Positions 40,307 through 47,937 of a DNA stretch of 49,258 nucleotides are shown here, piece after piece (position 1 is the first letter of the stretch; the number at the start of each line of letters is the position of its first letter). The notes beneath the pieces were generated by a model. It was not told the origin of the DNA. It saw nothing but the letters and a program-made list of their open reading frames with translations, and ran no database searches. The stretch comes from Nitrospirota bacterium (GTDB lineage Bacteria; Nitrospirota; UBA9217). The stretch covers positions 171,420-220,677 of the forward strand of contig JAOUEV010000001.1 in the NCBI GenBank assembly GCA_029858565.1. Reading direction: 5' to 3'. The position numbers and the translations under genes are program-made.

Positions 40307-40510
40307 TAAAGTGTCCGACCTGAACTACTATATACCACAGAACAGCACAGAGCCAAAGGATTGTGTGTTCCTACAGATTCAACCTTTTATTTCAGACTGT
40401 GTCAAACCATGACAGCGCGATCAGGGCAGTGTACCTGAACGACGTATGTGTTGCAGATTGAAGCGTCGTATGACGGCTATCTGCGTCCCTTTGCAGGAAG
40501 GCCGCTGCGG

Positions 40511-40516
40511 TATAAT
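40511..40516 (+). promoter_or_regulatory. Candidate -10 box of the DegP-type protease gene
   Basis: TATAAT 51 bp before the chosen ATG. A TTGCAG at 40491-40496 is only 14 bp away, so the -35 is poor and an activator or another sigma factor might be involved. Confidence 0.35.
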
Positions 40517-40567
40517 ATGTCAAGTCCGCCTGTCGGACGAAATCGCTATTTGGGGAGGGTATCTGCA

Positions 40568-42031
40568 ATGGTTATTCAGATCAAGCAAGGCTGGTACAGG
40601 TGGTTCTTCGCAATTGCTGCGGCGGTGCTGCTGCTGCAGGTCCATCACGCGCAGGCGAAGGACGGCGTGGTCCCGCAGGAGAGCAAGACATTCCTCAAAC
40701 AATTAAGCGCTTCGCTCGCTGATGTGGCAGAGGCGGTGAAACCTTCGGTGGTGAACGTTTCCACGACCACTTCGGTGTCAACGGAAGCGAATCCCTACGG
40801 CGACATGTTCAAGGATCCCTTCTTCCGCAGGTTCTTCGGCGACCAGTTCGATCATCCCAACGGGGGAAAGAAACAGCCGAAACGCAAGTCCGCGGCCATG
40901 GGCTCCGGAGTGATCGTGTCAACGGACGGCTACATCCTGACGAACAACCACGTGATCAAGGACGCGGACGAGATCACCGTGCTCCTGTCGGACAAGCGGG
41001 AGTTCAAGGGCAAGGTCATCGGGTCCGACCCCAAAACGGACCTTGCGGTGATCAAGATCGACGCCAGGGATCTGCCCGTGCTGTCCCTTGCCGATTCCGA
41101 CGGGCTCAAGATCGGCGACGTGGTCTTTGCCGTGGGCAATCCCTTCGGCCTGAACCAGACGATCACCATGGGCATCGTGAGCGCCGTGGGCCGGTCCAAC
41201 GTGGGCATCGCTGATTATGAGGATTTCATCCAGACCGATGCTGCCATCAATCCCGGGAACTCGGGCGGCGCGCTCGTGAACACGGACGGCAAGCTCGTGG
41301 GCATCAACACGGCCATTTTCTCGACCAGCGGCGGGTACATGGGGATCGGGTTCGCCATCCCCTCGAACATGGTCCGCATGGTAATGGACAGCGTGGTGAA
41401 GCACGGGAAGGTCGTCCGCGGATGGCTTGGCGTGAGCATCCAGAACCTGACCAAGGACCTGGCCGAGCATTTCAGCCTCAAGGAGCGGCGCGGCGCCCTG
41501 GTCACCGACGTTTCAAAGGACAGCCCGGCGGAAAAGGCGGGCATGAAACGGAGCGATGTCATCCTGTCCTTTAACGGCAGAAAAGTGGAGGACACGACCG
41601 GCCTCAGGAACATGGTCGCCGAGACCAAGCCGGGTTCTTCCGCCGAGGTCACGGTGATCCGGGAGGGCAAGGAAAAGACGCTCAAGGTCACGGTCGGAGA
41701 ACTGCCGGACAAGGAAGGGAAGATGACCGTGCGCAAGGCCGAACGGGACAACGCGCTGAAGGGCGTCACGGTGCAGGAACTGAGCGCTGATCTGCGGAAG
41801 CAGCTCAACATCGACGACGATGTGAACGGCGTGGTGGTGACCGATGTGGCGCAGGACAGCGCGGCTGCGGGCGTGCTCGGCAGGGGCGACGTTATCCAGC
41901 AGGTGGACCAGAAGGACGTCTCCAACATCGCCGACTTCGAGAAGGCCCTTGCAGGCGTGAAAGCAAAGGACACAGTGCTGCTGCTGGTGACGCGAAAAGG
42001 CGGATCGCTCTTCCTGACCATCAAACCGTGA
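40568..42031 (+). CDS. degQ: Periplasmic Do/DegP-DegQ family serine protease
   Basis: 487 residues from the ATG at 40568, which follows GGGAGGG and starts a clean signal peptide (RWFFAIAAAVLLLQ, cleavage after AQA). The trypsin-like triad is H128 (LTNNHVIKD), D158 (PKTDLAVIK) and S232 (NPGNSGGALV). Two PDZ domains follow: about residues 275-365 (WLGVSIQNLTKDLAEHFSLK) and about 385-485 (LKGVTVQELSADLRKQLNID). Such proteases degrade or refold damaged envelope proteins. DegP and DegQ cannot be separated safely. The frame is open upstream but unsupported. A strong terminator follows. Confidence 0.95.
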   Translation: MVIQIKQGWYRWFFAIAAAVLLLQVHHAQAKDGVVPQESKTFLKQLSASLADVAEAVKPSVVNVSTTTSVSTEANPYGDMFKDPFFRRFFGDQFDHPNGGKKQPKRKSAAMGSGVIVSTDGYILTNNHVIKDADEITVLLSDKREFKGKVIGSDPKTDLAVIKIDARDLPVLSLADSDGLKIGDVVFAVGNPFGLNQTITMGIVSAVGRSNVGIADYEDFIQTDAAINPGNSGGALVNTDGKLVGINTAIFSTSGGYMGIGFAIPSNMVRMVMDSVVKHGKVVRGWLGVSIQNLTKDLAEHFSLKERRGALVTDVSKDSPAEKAGMKRSDVILSFNGRKVEDTTGLRNMVAETKPGSSAEVTVIREGKEKTLKVTVGELPDKEGKMTVRKAERDNALKGVTVQELSADLRKQLNIDDDVNGVVVTDVAQDSAAAGVLGRGDVIQQVDQKDVSNIADFEKALAGVKAKDTVLLLVTRKGGSLFLTIKP

Positions 42032-42638: not shown

Positions 42639-43208
42639 TCACTGCTTTCTCGAAAAATCCGCTCTCACGGGCTTCCGCTCCTCTTCGTTATCCAGCGCGA
42701 AGAACTCCTTCTGCTTGAACGAGAAAGCGGCGGCAACGATGTTCATCGGAAAGATCTCGGTCGTGACATTGTAGTCCCGCACCATGGCGTTGTAGAACCT
42801 GCGAGCGTGCTCGATGTTGTCATCGATCTCCTTCATGTTCGTCATGATCTCCCGGTAGTGGCTGTCGGCCTTCAGCTCGGGATAGGCTTCGGCGATCGCG
42901 AACAGGCTCTTGAGTGTTGCCGTCAGCATATTGTCCGCCCGGGCCTTTTCCTGGGGGGTCCGGGCCTGCATCGCCGCTGACCGCTGCTGCGTTACCCGGA
43001 CCAGGGTATCGCTTTCATGGGCCGCATACGCCTTGACCGCCTCAACGAGGTTCGGCAGCAGCTCGTAGCGTTTCTTCAGGTGCACGTCGATGTCGGACCA
43101 CGATGTCCGGACAGCGTACCGCAGACGCACCAGCTTGTTGTATATGTAGATGACGATCAGCAGGAACAGCACGCTCCCGGCAATGCCCGCAAGCACCTTG
43201 ACGCTCAT
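42639..43208 (-). CDS. lemA: LemA family protein
   Basis: 189 residues. One N-terminal membrane helix (AGIAGSVLFLLIVIYIYNKL, about residues 7-26) is followed by the LemA helical domain: VRTSWSDIDVHLKKRYELLP, then NLVEAVKAYAAHESDTLVRV, FAIAEAYPELKADSHYREIM and RRFYNAMVRDYN. LemA proteins have the helical domain facing the periplasm. Their role is unclear, but they very often occur with DUF2207 or TPM-domain proteins, as here. AAGGAGGACC precedes the ATG. It is last in a four-gene minus-strand operon. Confidence 0.95.
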   Translation of the reverse strand: MSVKVLAGIAGSVLFLLIVIYIYNKLVRLRYAVRTSWSDIDVHLKKRYELLPNLVEAVKAYAAHESDTLVRVTQQRSAAMQARTPQEKARADNMLTATLKSLFAIAEAYPELKADSHYREIMTNMKEIDDNIEHARRFYNAMVRDYNVTTEIFPMNIVAAAFSFKQKEFFALDNEEERKPVRADFSRKQ

Positions 43209-43230
43209 CGTGGTCCTCCTTGTGCGAAGC

Positions 43231-43734
43231 TTATCGTGAAGGCCATTCGCCTTTCTTCTTTCTCGCCGCGGCTTCGGCCGGGCTCACGCCCATTTTTCTC
43301 CAGTCAGCCGCCAGGGTGTTGTGAAATCCCAGGTCCTTCCACGCGGCCGCTTCCTCGGGGACAAAACCCGCTTTGCCCCAGGCGCGCGCCTCATGGGGCC
43401 AGAAACCCCTGCTGTTCCATGCTCCGGCATTCTCGGGCTCAAAGCCCTCGCGGATCCAGATCGACGCATGGGGCGGCTTGAACCCGGCATTGCGCCACCG
43501 CACGGCCATGGCCCTGCCGATGCTCTCACGCTTCCAATCGTCGATCTCCGCGCCGCTCAGTCCGGTCCTTGACCAATCCCGGTCCTCAAGGTTTTCCTTG
43601 AGAACAACAGCATAATAGGGAACAGCATAGGAGGCAACAAGGCTCAGGACAAGGAGGGCACCGGCCATTCGGGGGGAAAAGATCCGGGCCGGACCTTTTG
43701 CCGTTGCCTTTTCCCTAGCACCCGGCCGGCTCAC
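43231..43734 (-). CDS. Membrane-anchored protein made of 13-residue W-x3-GF repeats (paralogue B)
   Basis: 167 residues from a GTG start at 43734. This GTG overlaps the stop of the upstream gene (GTGA) and has GGAGG 7 bp before it. The open frame continues 21 codons further into the neighbouring gene, but those codons are unlikely to be used. A basic N-terminus precedes one membrane helix (MAGALLVLSLVASYAVPYYA). The rest is eight to nine tandem units of exactly 13 residues with consensus xxWxxxGFxPxEA, for example SIWIREGFEPENA, GAWNSRGFWPHEA and RAWGKAGFVPEEA. The repeats are predicted outside the cytoplasm. No catalytic motif and no named family is recognised. Same length as its neighbour at 43731-44234. 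Confidence 0.85.
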   Translation of the reverse strand: MSRPGAREKATAKGPARIFSPRMAGALLVLSLVASYAVPYYAVVLKENLEDRDWSRTGLSGAEIDDWKRESIGRAMAVRWRNAGFKPPHASIWIREGFEPENAGAWNSRGFWPHEARAWGKAGFVPEEAAAWKDLGFHNTLAADWRKMGVSPAEAAARKKKGEWPSR

Positions 43735-44234
43735 GGCATGCCTCCGCTCAGCCGGGCTTTGGCGGCCTGTGCCGGGCTCATGCCTTTCTGCCGCCAAGCG
43801 GCCGCTTCCCCTGCATCAAAGCCGTGCTTCCGCCAGGCGATCGCATCGCCGGTGGAGAACTCAAAGCGGATCCATTCAGCCGCTTTCCCCGGTGCAAAAG
43901 CATAGCGCCGCCATTCAGCAGCTGCCGCAACATCGGCCCGCGCATCGATCCACTCCCGCGCCTCGGCCGGCGGGATGTCCATTGCCTGCCACTGGCCGAT
44001 CTCCGGTGCAGTGAATCCCTTGCTGCGCCAGGCGATCGCCGATCTCATGGAATAGACGCCGTTGTCCCACCACAACAGCGTGTCCCCGGGAGCAAAGCCG
44101 TATTTTTCCCAACGGGCGATGCGGGCGTTCTCGACCACCGCGACGACGGCAAAGGGGGCCAGGAACGAGAGCGCCAGGCTCAGGACCAGCAGCAGCCTCG
44201 ATGACCAGGTATTCTTTGCGCCGGCAACATCCAT
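43731..44234 (-). CDS. Membrane-anchored protein made of 13-residue W-x3-GF repeats (paralogue A)
   Basis: 167 residues. One N-terminal membrane helix (LLLVLSLALSFLAPFAVVAV, about residues 14-35), then nine tandem units of 13-14 residues following xxWxxxGFxPxEA, for example IAWRSKGFTAPEI, IAWRKHGFDAGEA and AAWRQKGMSPAQA. Some units are degenerate (REWIDARADVAAA). Each unit could be a short helix pair with the Trp and Phe packing between units. TAAGGAG, partly formed by the stop of the DUF2207 gene, precedes the ATG. It is coupled to paralogue B by a 4-base overlap. The function is unknown; a periplasmic scaffold or binding role with LemA/DUF2207 is inference. Confidence 0.85.
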   Translation of the reverse strand: MDVAGAKNTWSSRLLLVLSLALSFLAPFAVVAVVENARIARWEKYGFAPGDTLLWWDNGVYSMRSAIAWRSKGFTAPEIGQWQAMDIPPAEAREWIDARADVAAAAEWRRYAFAPGKAAEWIRFEFSTGDAIAWRKHGFDAGEAAAWRQKGMSPAQAAKARLSGGMP

Positions 44235-44247
44235 GGGACCACGCTCC

Positions 44248-46599
44248 TTACAGGGACCTCTTTATTGTTGTGATGAAATCACCGCAGGCGAAACCGCCGG
44301 AGTCTCCCTGGTACCACGACACTTCGCCGCTCCGGACCTGCAGACCATCGACAGCAATTCCTGCCGCGATCGCATAGGGCAGGTGCTTCTGAAGAAAAGG
44401 CGGCAGATACGTCCGGCCGGGGAGGTCGGCAAAGCTTTGTTTCAGGAACGCGGCATAGGCGCGGAGCTTTTCCTGCAGGTCCACATGCTCCCGTGTGGGA
44501 CGGCGAAGGAGCCGGCTGAAGAGGAGCGAGAGCAGGCTGAAGCCCGCTGCGACCACAGCTCCATAGGCTACCAGGCTGGCGGCAGCTTTGCCGTGGAAGC
44601 TGAGCCTGCTTGTATCGATGACCGCAAGGGAGGCGCCGAGGAACAGCAGGGACAGTCCGACGCCCGGCCAGAGATACCGGGTATTCTTTTCTGTCCGCCT
44701 TCGGTACTCACGTTGCATGGATCTTTTCAGCAAACGGCCTGCATGCGCAAGCTGCCTGTTCTTCGAACGTCCGGCAAGGATCACCGTGCTGCGTTCCTGA
44801 AAGAGCGCGCTCAGGAACTCCTTGTCGCTCTCGGGGAGCGGAGCCTGCTCCGGCTCCGTCCTTTCGATCCTGTAGGCGCCTCCGGATTCAAGGACCCTGA
44901 TGAAGCCCCGGTTGGCAAGAGCGAGCAGCGCGGCTGCCGCGCTCAAATGGTCCGTTGTTCCCCGTGCCATGAGCGCGCGCATCCGCGGCGGGTCCACCTC
45001 CTTGGGCGGTGAGAACTCGGTGGTTGCGGAGCCCCGGGGCTTCGGGTCGCGGCCGACCCGGTGCCAAACGATCACGTAGTAGACAGTGCACACAACAAGT
45101 CCGGAAAGGAACAGGAACAGGCTGGACAGAAAACGCCGTGTTTTCCGGTCAACCTGATCGAGCCGCTGCAGCCACGACGGCCGTGCATAGCCCTTGACGA
45201 ACCCGAGATCGATGGAGAAGGACATGTCCTGCCTCAGGGGCCTGGTGACAGTATACCGCACAATATCGCCTGCTTCGGTCTCTTCTGTTTCCGTAAGGAA
45301 GTCCGTCCTTTCCCGCAGTCCAGCGGTCCCCCGGCTAAAGATGACATGGCCGCCCTTTGGCAGCCGGACGGTCGCGGCGGCGCTCCTCAGATAATTCCCC
45401 GGGGGAAGGTCGCCAACAAGAACAAAGCATAGTTCATCGTGGTGCGGTTCATCGCGTACCATGCGGCCGGTCGTGTAGGCCAGTGTTATCCGGTGTTCGC
45501 CTTCCGGCAGCGGCGCTCCGTTCTGCATGACCTGGATCCCCTGGTCCGCAGGAACGTAGGCAGCGGGCCGGCCATCCACCTCGACCGATCTTACCTTCAT
45601 TCCCGCCGCTGCGTAGGTAGACCGGGAGTTCCATAATCCGCACTCTTGCGCAGGAGCAAGCTTGTGGAAACCGTTCCGGAAAAATCCGCCCGGTCTGTCG
45701 ATGACCGTGATCATTTCGATGATCTCGAGCGTGCCGTCGCTCCTCACGGTCATGTCCGCAAAGAACTCTGTTACCTCATCTTCCCGGACAGAGGAATCAT
45801 GCTGCCTGAGTTCAGCCTCCTGCGCGGACAGTCCGGCGTTCCTTCGCGCCGCCGCGTCCTCCAGGCTGAAGCCCGAGTCCTTCCACAGGACCATCTCCCT
45901 GAATGGGAACCCGGCCTGTTTCCATTCGAGCGCCTCGTCAAGCTTGATCTGATAGGTCCTGGCACGATGGGCTTCTTCAGGGCCGAACCCGGCAGATCTC
46001 CATGTTTTCGCGAAATTGACGTCATGCACTTCCTGGGAATAACGCGCGTCCTTGGTGAAGTAGAACTCGCTCACCCGTGGACCATATCGCCACTCCAACG
46101 TTGACTGGGCGTCGAATCCGGCGTTCTTCCACTCTTTTGCCTCCTCGGGATAGAGGCTTCGTGACCAGAAGGTTCCCGCCTCTTTGGCAGTGAATCCGGC
46201 GGCCAGATATTCCGCGGCGCGCTCTCCGGACCTGATGCCGCTGTCCATCCATTCCCGCGCCTCGTCCGGGCTGAAGCCGTTCCTCAGGAATTTCCCCGCG
46301 GTATAGACGTTCGCTATCCCGTGCCATTGTCCCGCTGACCGCGCGTTGAAACCTTCGCCCTTCCACTGCGCGGCCCAGGCGGCGAATATGATCCCTTCCT
46401 CGATCCACTGCCGTGATTCCTCTGCGCTGATGCCGTGGTAATTCCACTCTGCCCTGTCCGACGGAGGCACGCCTCTCAGATTTTCGTCAAGATGGGCAAA
46501 GGCCGCAGGGGGGATTGCCGCGGTCAGGGCGAACAACATGACCGGGACAGCCAGTGCGGCAGCGGTGCGACGGTATAGGGAGGGATGCCTGCGGGTCAT
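44248..46599 (-). CDS. DUF2207 membrane protein with N-terminal array of 13-residue W-x3-GF repeats
   Basis: 783 residues from the ATG at 46599, which begins a clean signal peptide (RRHPSLYRR, hydrophobic core, cleavage after AFA at about 35). An ATG four codons earlier overlaps the predicted -10 box. Residues about 45-290 hold about fifteen xxWxxxGFxPxEA-type units (REWMDSGIRSGE, KTWRSAGFGPEEA, VLWKDSGFSLEDA). Then comes the extracytoplasmic DUF2207 beta domain (ADMTVRSDGTLEIIEMITVI) to about 500. A membrane helix (SLFLFLSGLVVCTVYYVIVW) and a cytoplasmic part with two more helices end the protein. The usual glycine-rich DUF2207 tail is short. The repeat array is the unusual addition. First gene of the lemA operon. 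Confidence 0.85.
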   Translation of the reverse strand: MTRRHPSLYRRTAAALAVPVMLFALTAAIPPAAFAHLDENLRGVPPSDRAEWNYHGISAEESRQWIEEGIIFAAWAAQWKGEGFNARSAGQWHGIANVYTAGKFLRNGFSPDEAREWMDSGIRSGERAAEYLAAGFTAKEAGTFWSRSLYPEEAKEWKNAGFDAQSTLEWRYGPRVSEFYFTKDARYSQEVHDVNFAKTWRSAGFGPEEAHRARTYQIKLDEALEWKQAGFPFREMVLWKDSGFSLEDAAARRNAGLSAQEAELRQHDSSVREDEVTEFFADMTVRSDGTLEIIEMITVIDRPGGFFRNGFHKLAPAQECGLWNSRSTYAAAGMKVRSVEVDGRPAAYVPADQGIQVMQNGAPLPEGEHRITLAYTTGRMVRDEPHHDELCFVLVGDLPPGNYLRSAAATVRLPKGGHVIFSRGTAGLRERTDFLTETEETEAGDIVRYTVTRPLRQDMSFSIDLGFVKGYARPSWLQRLDQVDRKTRRFLSSLFLFLSGLVVCTVYYVIVWHRVGRDPKPRGSATTEFSPPKEVDPPRMRALMARGTTDHLSAAAALLALANRGFIRVLESGGAYRIERTEPEQAPLPESDKEFLSALFQERSTVILAGRSKNRQLAHAGRLLKRSMQREYRRRTEKNTRYLWPGVGLSLLFLGASLAVIDTSRLSFHGKAAASLVAYGAVVAAGFSLLSLLFSRLLRRPTREHVDLQEKLRAYAAFLKQSFADLPGRTYLPPFLQKHLPYAIAAGIAVDGLQVRSGEVSWYQGDSGGFACGDFITTIKRSL

Positions 46600-46606
46600 G
46601 AACAAA

Positions 46607-46635
46607 AGCATAGCGTGAACAGCAGACTGAATCAA
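46607..46635 (-). promoter_or_regulatory. Probable promoter of the DUF2207-lemA operon, leaderless arrangement
   Basis: Minus strand: TTGATT (46635-46630), 17-bp spacer, TATGCT (46612-46607), then 7 bp to the ATG at 46599. Transcription would start almost at the start codon; no ribosome binding site is visible. Confidence 0.5.
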
Positions 46636-46710: not shown

Positions 46711-47937
46711 TCATTTATTTCGTTCATTCACCATGCGGAAATATTCCTCCCGGCATTTGTTCTCCGCCTCGACCAGTTTCCGGAAAGCGCCACGGAAGTC
46801 GTTCTCCGAACCCGCGAACACGCCGTGGCCGTAGACGATGCAGACGCCGGTCTCCTTGATCGCGGCCGGGACGGTCCTGGCCAGGCCGCCGGCGCCCAAC
46901 TCGCCGGACACGATGGGGATGCCGCAGATGGAGCGGGTCCGCTTGCAGTCCCTGCCGCAGTCCTTGACAGCGCAATTCTGTTCCTCGCAGAACATGGACA
47001 GGATCACGCTGAACTTCGGATGGCCGTGCAGGATGGCGTTGAAGCCCGTGGACTGGTAGATCGCCCGGTGCGCGGGAAGTTCCGACGAGGCCGAGAGCCC
47101 GGCGGTCGACGATCCGTCGAGCGGCACCGGATCGATGTGTCCCTCCAATTCGTCAAGGGACGACGCTGTCTGGCTGATATAGATCGTCTTTCCGTCAAAG
47201 AAACTGATGTTCCCGAAAAAGGAATCCACCAATCCTTTTTCGACCGTTGCCCGGCCCACCTTGACTATCTCATCGTAGATGAGATTCTTTTGATCACATC
47301 CCGCACTCCGCACTCCGCACTCCGCGCTTGGCGCGCGCAGACTCTCGCGCAGAGGAACGTCCGATGCCTCCACCGGCAGCGCCCAGGCAAGCCGCATCTC
47401 GTTGAATGCCGCAGCCTCGTCATTGTTCCGAAAGCCCTGCTCAAGGACATCGAGGCAGAATTTGAGAAAGGTCGCGTGGAACACCGTGGAGTAGACGATA
47501 TAGGCCTGCTCAACGGTCACGCTGCCCATACCGATGAAACCCAGGCCCTCGACGATCACGGCTTTGCGTTCTTTCAAACAGCGGACGATCCTCCGGGCGG
47601 TCTCTTCCGCGGACTGTCCCTGCCAGTCGCTCTTCCTGAGGAACGGGAAATCATGGTGAAAGGTCTTGGTCTCGCTGTCCTTGGGAACGATGCGATCCTC
47701 GGCAGGTCCCGCGGCAGCCACGAGCAGGTCGCCGAAGGGGAGCGGGGGCCGGGCCAGCAGCAGGGCCGTGGCGTTCAGGCCCGCGAAGACCTTGGTGAAA
47801 ACCGGCAGCCACTCATCATCCCTGCCTGAAATGACCACGTCGTCAAGGCGGTAGAACCGGATGCTGTTCGCGAGCGCGATGCGGTCGCGCAGGAGCTTGC
47901 CGGAATATTTTTCGAACTGGTCGGCGAGAAGTGCCAT
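46711..47937 (-). CDS. Class II aldolase/adducin family protein with extra N-terminal domain
   Basis: 408 residues from the ATG at 47937, which has AAGGAT before it; another ATG at 48036 gives 441 residues. Residues about 215-408 form a class II aldolase/adducin domain (VEKGLVDSFFGNISFFDGKT, the metal-binding ILHGHPKFS, then VYGHGVFA). Residues 1 to about 190 form a second, divergent domain with VVISGRDDEWLPVFTKVFAG and ARPPLPFGDLLVAAAG that may be a degenerate aldolase fold. Normal family members have about 210-260 residues. The linker between the two parts (ECGVRSAGCD) is encoded by a tandem heptamer array. A cysteine-rich loop (CEEQNCAVKDCGRDC) is unusual. Substrate unknown; a sugar phosphate such as fuculose phosphate is typical of the family. 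Confidence 0.82.
   Translation of the reverse strand: MALLADQFEKYSGKLLRDRIALANSIRFYRLDDVVISGRDDEWLPVFTKVFAGLNATALLLARPPLPFGDLLVAAAGPAEDRIVPKDSETKTFHHDFPFLRKSDWQGQSAEETARRIVRCLKERKAVIVEGLGFIGMGSVTVEQAYIVYSTVFHATFLKFCLDVLEQGFRNNDEAAAFNEMRLAWALPVEASDVPLRESLRAPSAECGVRSAGCDQKNLIYDEIVKVGRATVEKGLVDSFFGNISFFDGKTIYISQTASSLDELEGHIDPVPLDGSSTAGLSASSELPAHRAIYQSTGFNAILHGHPKFSVILSMFCEEQNCAVKDCGRDCKRTRSICGIPIVSGELGAGGLARTVPAAIKETGVCIVYGHGVFAGSENDFRGAFRKLVEAENKCREEYFRMVNERNK
47301..47328. repeat. Tandem heptamer CCGCACT x4 inside the aldolase gene
   Basis: CCGCACT three times then CCGCGCT. It is read in frame on the minus strand as part of an AECGVRSAGCD linker. The same unit in the other orientation forms the array at 15964-15991. 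Confidence 0.85.

What the first reader, a model, noticed from the sequence alone, without database searches (positions are those of the whole stretch)
42639..46635. Three consecutive LemA-operon proteins share an undescribed-looking 13-residue W-x3-G-F repeat
Two equal-length (167-residue) membrane-anchored proteins and the front of the DUF2207 protein are built from tandem xxWxxxGFxPxEA units, about 33 in total. In paralogue B the period is exactly 13 residues. LemA next to DUF2207 is established; adding repeat arrays on the same, predicted extracytoplasmic, side of three neighbours suggests a scaffold or receptor working with LemA/DUF2207. The genes are coupled by overlaps (GTGA; a stop inside a binding site). 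I know no named family with this unit.
Basis: partly seen in the sequence, partly recalled or inferred. Interest (0 to 1): 0.8.

Follow-up and report, generated by a model that had tools for sequence, protein, structure and literature searches.

The report
Trp-Gly-Phe helical repeat arrays beside LemA
Three neighbouring membrane proteins in this bacterium carry arrays of a 13-residue building block, predicted to fold into a coil of short helices, that no protein-family library consulted names; here it sits in a four-gene set with LemA found in only a few genomes from several phyla, but the same block also turns up in unrelated proteins across many bacteria.

Summary
The repeat is real. D (DUF2207 protein), A and B carry about 33 units of 13 residues, consensus [ST][PA]EEA+xW+xAGF. 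AlphaFold2 gives B (pLDDT 92) one 8-9 residue helix per unit, an alpha-solenoid with no significant match in the PDB or viral fold libraries. No Pfam, NCBIfam or PHROGs model covers it; the nearest is Pfam's Decapeptide repeat (PF25296), which the window proteins fail. D-A-B-LemA is a conserved cassette: same order, same A/B start-stop overlap, unrelated flanking genes, in six genomes of at least three phyla. Its LemAs form one clade (99/96). Units keep their order (58-64% identity between equivalent units, 19-27% between different ones), and D's array is better conserved than the DUF2207 domain it is fused to. The unit is not specific to LemA/DUF2207: some 70 array loci were found, including kinases, lipoproteins and viral contigs, and only the orthologous cassettes sit with LemA and DUF2207. 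Best reading: a general protein-interaction solenoid, used here as a three-subunit extracytoplasmic scaffold or receptor coupled through DUF2207 to the membrane and LemA. Function untested.

The parts
42639..43208 (-). LemA (189 aa), last gene of the cassette; one N-terminal TM helix
   Evidence: PF04011 3e-50; in one clade with the other five cassette LemAs
43231..43734 (-). Protein B (167 aa, GTG start overlapping A's stop as GTGA): N-terminal TM helix then 8 units
43264..43596 (-). W-x3-G-F array of B, period exactly 13 residues
   Evidence: W spacing, 8 model helices, DNA pattern
43731..44234 (-). Protein A (167 aa): N-terminal TM helix then 9-10 units
43755..44132 (-). W-x3-G-F array of A
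   Evidence: 8 Trp pairs at lag 13 against a shuffled mean of 0.61
44248..46635 (-). Protein D: signal-peptide-like N-terminus, array, DUF2207 N domain, TM, DUF2207_C (start open: 46707, 46635 or 46599)
   Evidence: PF09972 and PF20990 over cut-off
45790..46467 (-). Array of D, 16 model helices in two blocks
   Evidence: model residues 58-281, most 10-residue blocks at pLDDT 73-92, lower at the start and at the break; 53-58% identity to orthologues
45304..45774 (-). DUF2207 N-terminal domain of D
   Evidence: PF09972 24.7 bits, cut-off 24.4
44353..45015 (-). DUF2207_C domain of D
   Evidence: PF20990 61.7 bits, cut-off 33

Best explanation
D, A, B and LemA are one co-inherited membrane unit. 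The 13-residue unit is a single-helix solenoid repeat: S/T and P/A with acidic residues start a short helix, Trp and Ala pack it on its neighbours, Gly-Phe ends it. It serves in general as a protein-interaction surface. Here three different, non-interchangeable arrays are held outside the cytoplasm by the TM helices of A, B and D. Inferred mechanism: they associate with each other or with a shared envelope partner, and the DUF2207 TM segments carry binding or mechanical state to the cytoplasmic DUF2207_C domain and LemA, acting as an envelope scaffold or stress sensor. Shown: repeat, cassette, shared LemA ancestry, fixed unit order. Predicted: fold. Inferred: sidedness, interaction and signalling.
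For: Model of B at pLDDT 92 with one helix per 13 residues; 16 array helices in D. Cassette with conserved gene order in six genomes with unrelated flanks, and the same ATGA/GTGA overlap of A and B in all six. Cassette LemAs one clade, 99/96. Equivalent units 58-64% identical between genomes, different units 19-27%: each unit individually constrained, as expected of a specific binding surface rather than a spacer. D's array 53-58% identical where its DUF2207 part is 39-46%. N-terminal positive charge of B and the signal-peptide-like start of D place the arrays outside; [quoted passage not shown] mutans DUF2207 mutant loses acid and peroxide tolerance and biofilm (PMC10457818).
Against: No partner, ligand or phenotype is known for this cassette. 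Arrays in other genomes stand alone, and no neighbour family was shared widely among 35 representatives, so the unit does not need LemA. In Ca. Calescibacterium and Sulfurimonas the arrays lie behind kinase domains, presumably in the cytoplasm. The same S. [quoted passage not shown] LemA's soluble domain is predicted outside in one paper (PMC3905215), whereas the positive-inside rule on this sequence suggests inside. The full D model is poor outside the array (mean pLDDT 56).
Confidence: 0.45

Rival explanations
1. The arrays are passive stalks or spacers that set the distance of DUF2207 and LemA from the wall or outer membrane, with no specific partner.
For: Solenoids of varied length suit spacers; unit number varies between genomes outside the cassette (3 to about 47 in one protein).
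Against: Within the cassette, unit order is kept and each unit has its own conserved residues; D's array is the best conserved part of D.
Confidence: 0.2
2. The arrays bind a cell-envelope polymer (peptidoglycan, LPS) and simply anchor the complex to it.
For: Related arrays occur in small predicted lipoproteins of Shewanella, Rheinheimera, Myxococcota and others, which would sit at the envelope.
Against: Arrays also occur behind kinase domains, in predicted cytosolic proteins and on viral contigs, where no wall is at hand.
Confidence: 0.15
3. The unit is a variant of Pfam's Decapeptide repeat (PF25296, DotG/IcmE type) lengthened by about one helical turn, and its role should be read from that family.
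For: PF25296 is the only repeat model that keeps ringing: L105 93.6 bits, L086 35.7, D 18.8 against a cut-off of 45. L105 also rings NCBIfam's DotG/IcmE model, far below cut-off. DotG repeats are 30 bp, that is 10 residues (PMC2639597).
Against: Period 13, not 10; A and B did not match; in L105 the best stretch is only 9 residues; D is far below cut-off.
Confidence: 0.2

Closest known systems
Pfam PF25296 Decapeptide repeat region (DotG/IcmE type)
   Same: Short tandem unit that weakly resembles this one in profile search
   Different: 10-residue period; window proteins below cut-off or without a match
LemA-DUF2207 gene pair (for example P. saccharofermentans, PMC12631010)
   Same: The same two families adjacent
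   Different: Here D carries an N-terminal array and two array proteins are inserted between D and LemA; G396, G397 and G398 also hold a separate array-less DUF2207 gene beside another LemA
Designed left-handed alpha/alpha toroids (5byo, 4yxz)
   Same: Best Foldseek probability (0.82 for 5byo): stacked helices
   Different: E = 0.42, not significant; designed proteins
MamQ (magnetosome LemA homologue)
   Same: LemA family
   Different: 86 bits against a cut-off of 250

Membership tests
LemA (PF04011) | Profile score over cut-off, N-terminal TM | tested here: met
   170.4 bits against 26.2; TM helix read from the sequence
DUF2207 (PF09972 / PF20990) | Both domains over cut-off | tested here: met
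   24.7 against 24.4 (bare) and 61.7 against 33 bits
Decapeptide repeat PF25296 | 10-residue period and score over 45 bits | tested here: not met
   Period 13; D 18.8 bits; A and B no match
MamQ (NF040966) | Equivalog cut-off 250 bits | tested here: not met
   86.2 bits
Alpha-solenoid repeat proteins (general fold class) | Regularly stacked helices in an open solenoid | tested here: inconclusive
   Predicted helix per unit at high pLDDT; no coordinates measured, no significant fold match
LemA-DUF2207 locus | The two genes together on one strand | tested here: met
   Same strand, with A and B between them

The most novel reading that the evidence does not exclude
A widespread, unnamed class of single-helix 13-residue solenoid repeat, used by bacteria and viruses as an interchangeable interaction module on kinases, lipoproteins and membrane proteins, which here builds a three-subunit extracytoplasmic receptor that defines a distinct LemA/DUF2207 signalling complex.
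Probability: 0.35. Interest if true: 0.75.

Novelty: new variant of a known kind. Interest (0 to 1): 0.55.

Why it matters
LemA and DUF2207 are widespread and their function is unknown. A compact cassette in which DUF2207 has acquired large, strongly conserved interaction arrays gives a handle on what the pair touches outside the cell. Separately, a widespread repeat without a family model leaves kinases and lipoproteins that carry it unannotated there; a model of the unit would mark them.

Tried and rejected
Chance or composition: rejected. A unit specific to LemA/DUF2207: rejected by the 3-unit DNA pattern scan. 41 of the 113 pattern loci were judged spurious by eye (Gly/Cys-rich antisense frames, DNA tandem repeats) and set aside; that list is a judgement. 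Known solved fold: phmmer and Foldseek found nothing significant. Shared operon partner of stand-alone arrays: none common. Array as a standard DUF2207 extension: four other long Nitrospirota DUF2207 proteins have unrelated extensions. Phage collection: no match. Plasmids: three weak hits. Literature for the unit: nothing found. The third fold search was left unused because the full D model is poor.

Full report
Observation. D, A, B and LemA lie head to tail on the minus strand. A's stop and B's start overlap (GTGA, 43731-43734) and D's TAA lies in A's TAAGGAG site. Trp recurs at 13 residues: 8 pairs in A, 7 in B, 4 in D's N-terminus, against shuffled means of 0.61, 0.50 and 0.44; no shuffle reached A or B, while some reached D. 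D's case therefore rests more on its WxxxGF count (5 against 0.05), on its 16-helix model and on conservation. Reading the units gives about 33.

Anatomy. From 483 units of 72 array proteins elsewhere the consensus is [S/T/N/D][P/A]E[E/D]AKxW[K/R]xAGF (the units were picked by a W...G/A-hydrophobic pattern, so W, G and F are high by construction, while the S/T, P/A, E, A and K/R preferences are not). D, with only four sequences, models well in its array and poorly elsewhere. Foldseek found no match at E <= 0.001 in the PDB or BFVD.

The cassette. A 61-genome search found the same gene set in G003, read as L006 and L047, a Nitrospiria MAG. Scans then gave Smithella (L034), a MAG titled Deltaproteobacteria (L019; filed under Myxococcota by NCBI), a Methylomirabilota MAG (L042, L189) and a further genome of the window's phylum, G253 (L188). 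The A/B start-stop overlap is ATGA or GTGA in all six, by the coordinates. Flanking genes differ where they were read. A LemA tree puts the six cassette LemAs in one clade, 99/96, apart from the other LemAs of the same genomes, so LemA at least travels with the arrays; trees of D, A and B were not made, and transfer between phyla against old descent with loss was not tested.

Conservation. Equivalent units are 58% (B), 58% (A) and 64% (D) identical between genomes, different units 27%, 27% and 19%. D's array is 53-58% identical to orthologues where the rest is 39-46%. By contrast, the long arrays of Ca. Calescibacterium (L103, L105) and of a Leptospiraceae MAG (L121) have 43-60% identity between units of one protein, as in recent expansion.

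Spread. The three-unit DNA pattern hit 105 stretches in about 85,000 genomes and 8 in viral contigs. By inspection 72 of the 113 hold real arrays, in at least 14 phyla. They include small predicted lipoproteins of Shewanella and relatives, kinase-linked arrays (L070, L085, L102, L103), arrays with a cupredoxin domain in Actinomycetota, and viral-contig proteins. The scan requires three perfect WxxxGF in phase, so it undercounts, and it is blind to degenerate arrays such as A and D by themselves. In samples of 396 genomes of the window's phylum and 395 of Smithella's, B-profile hits occur in six and three genomes, cassettes in three and one.

Known families. LemA and DUF2207 membership is met, the DUF2207 N-domain barely. 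No library model covers the unit. PF25296 is nearest and is not met by A, B or D.

Mechanism. The best reading is stated with its shown, predicted and inferred steps under Best explanation. LemA's side is open: sequence charges suggest its body is cytoplasmic, a paper predicts outside. Calling the unit undescribed rests on the libraries and the open-licence papers searched here, not on all literature.

Noticed in passing
L070, L085, L102, L103 (L105 and L044 probably parts of similar proteins): Ser/Thr kinase domains followed by W-x3-G-F arrays, in one case (L070) with FHA and WD40 domains
   Followed up: partly
L039, L053, L069, L112: Actinomycetota proteins with three N-terminal units, a membrane helix and a cupredoxin-like domain
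   Followed up: no
L123, L125, L126 (IMGVR_UViG_3300042965_000182): One viral contig holds at least three array proteins without predicted membrane helices; L126's protein has no match in the phage collection
   Followed up: partly
L082, L086, L119, L190: Array proteins ending in a similar cysteine-bearing stretch (CPxG ... GNPYxxKGxC) of unknown function
   Followed up: no
L184-L187: Long Nitrospirota DUF2207 proteins with a conserved, array-less N-terminal extension of about 200 residues
   Followed up: no
40448-42031: HtrA/DegP-like protease gene convergent to LemA in the window
   Followed up: no
47300-47335: Short GCACTCC tandem repeat inside the aldolase-domain ORF
   Followed up: no
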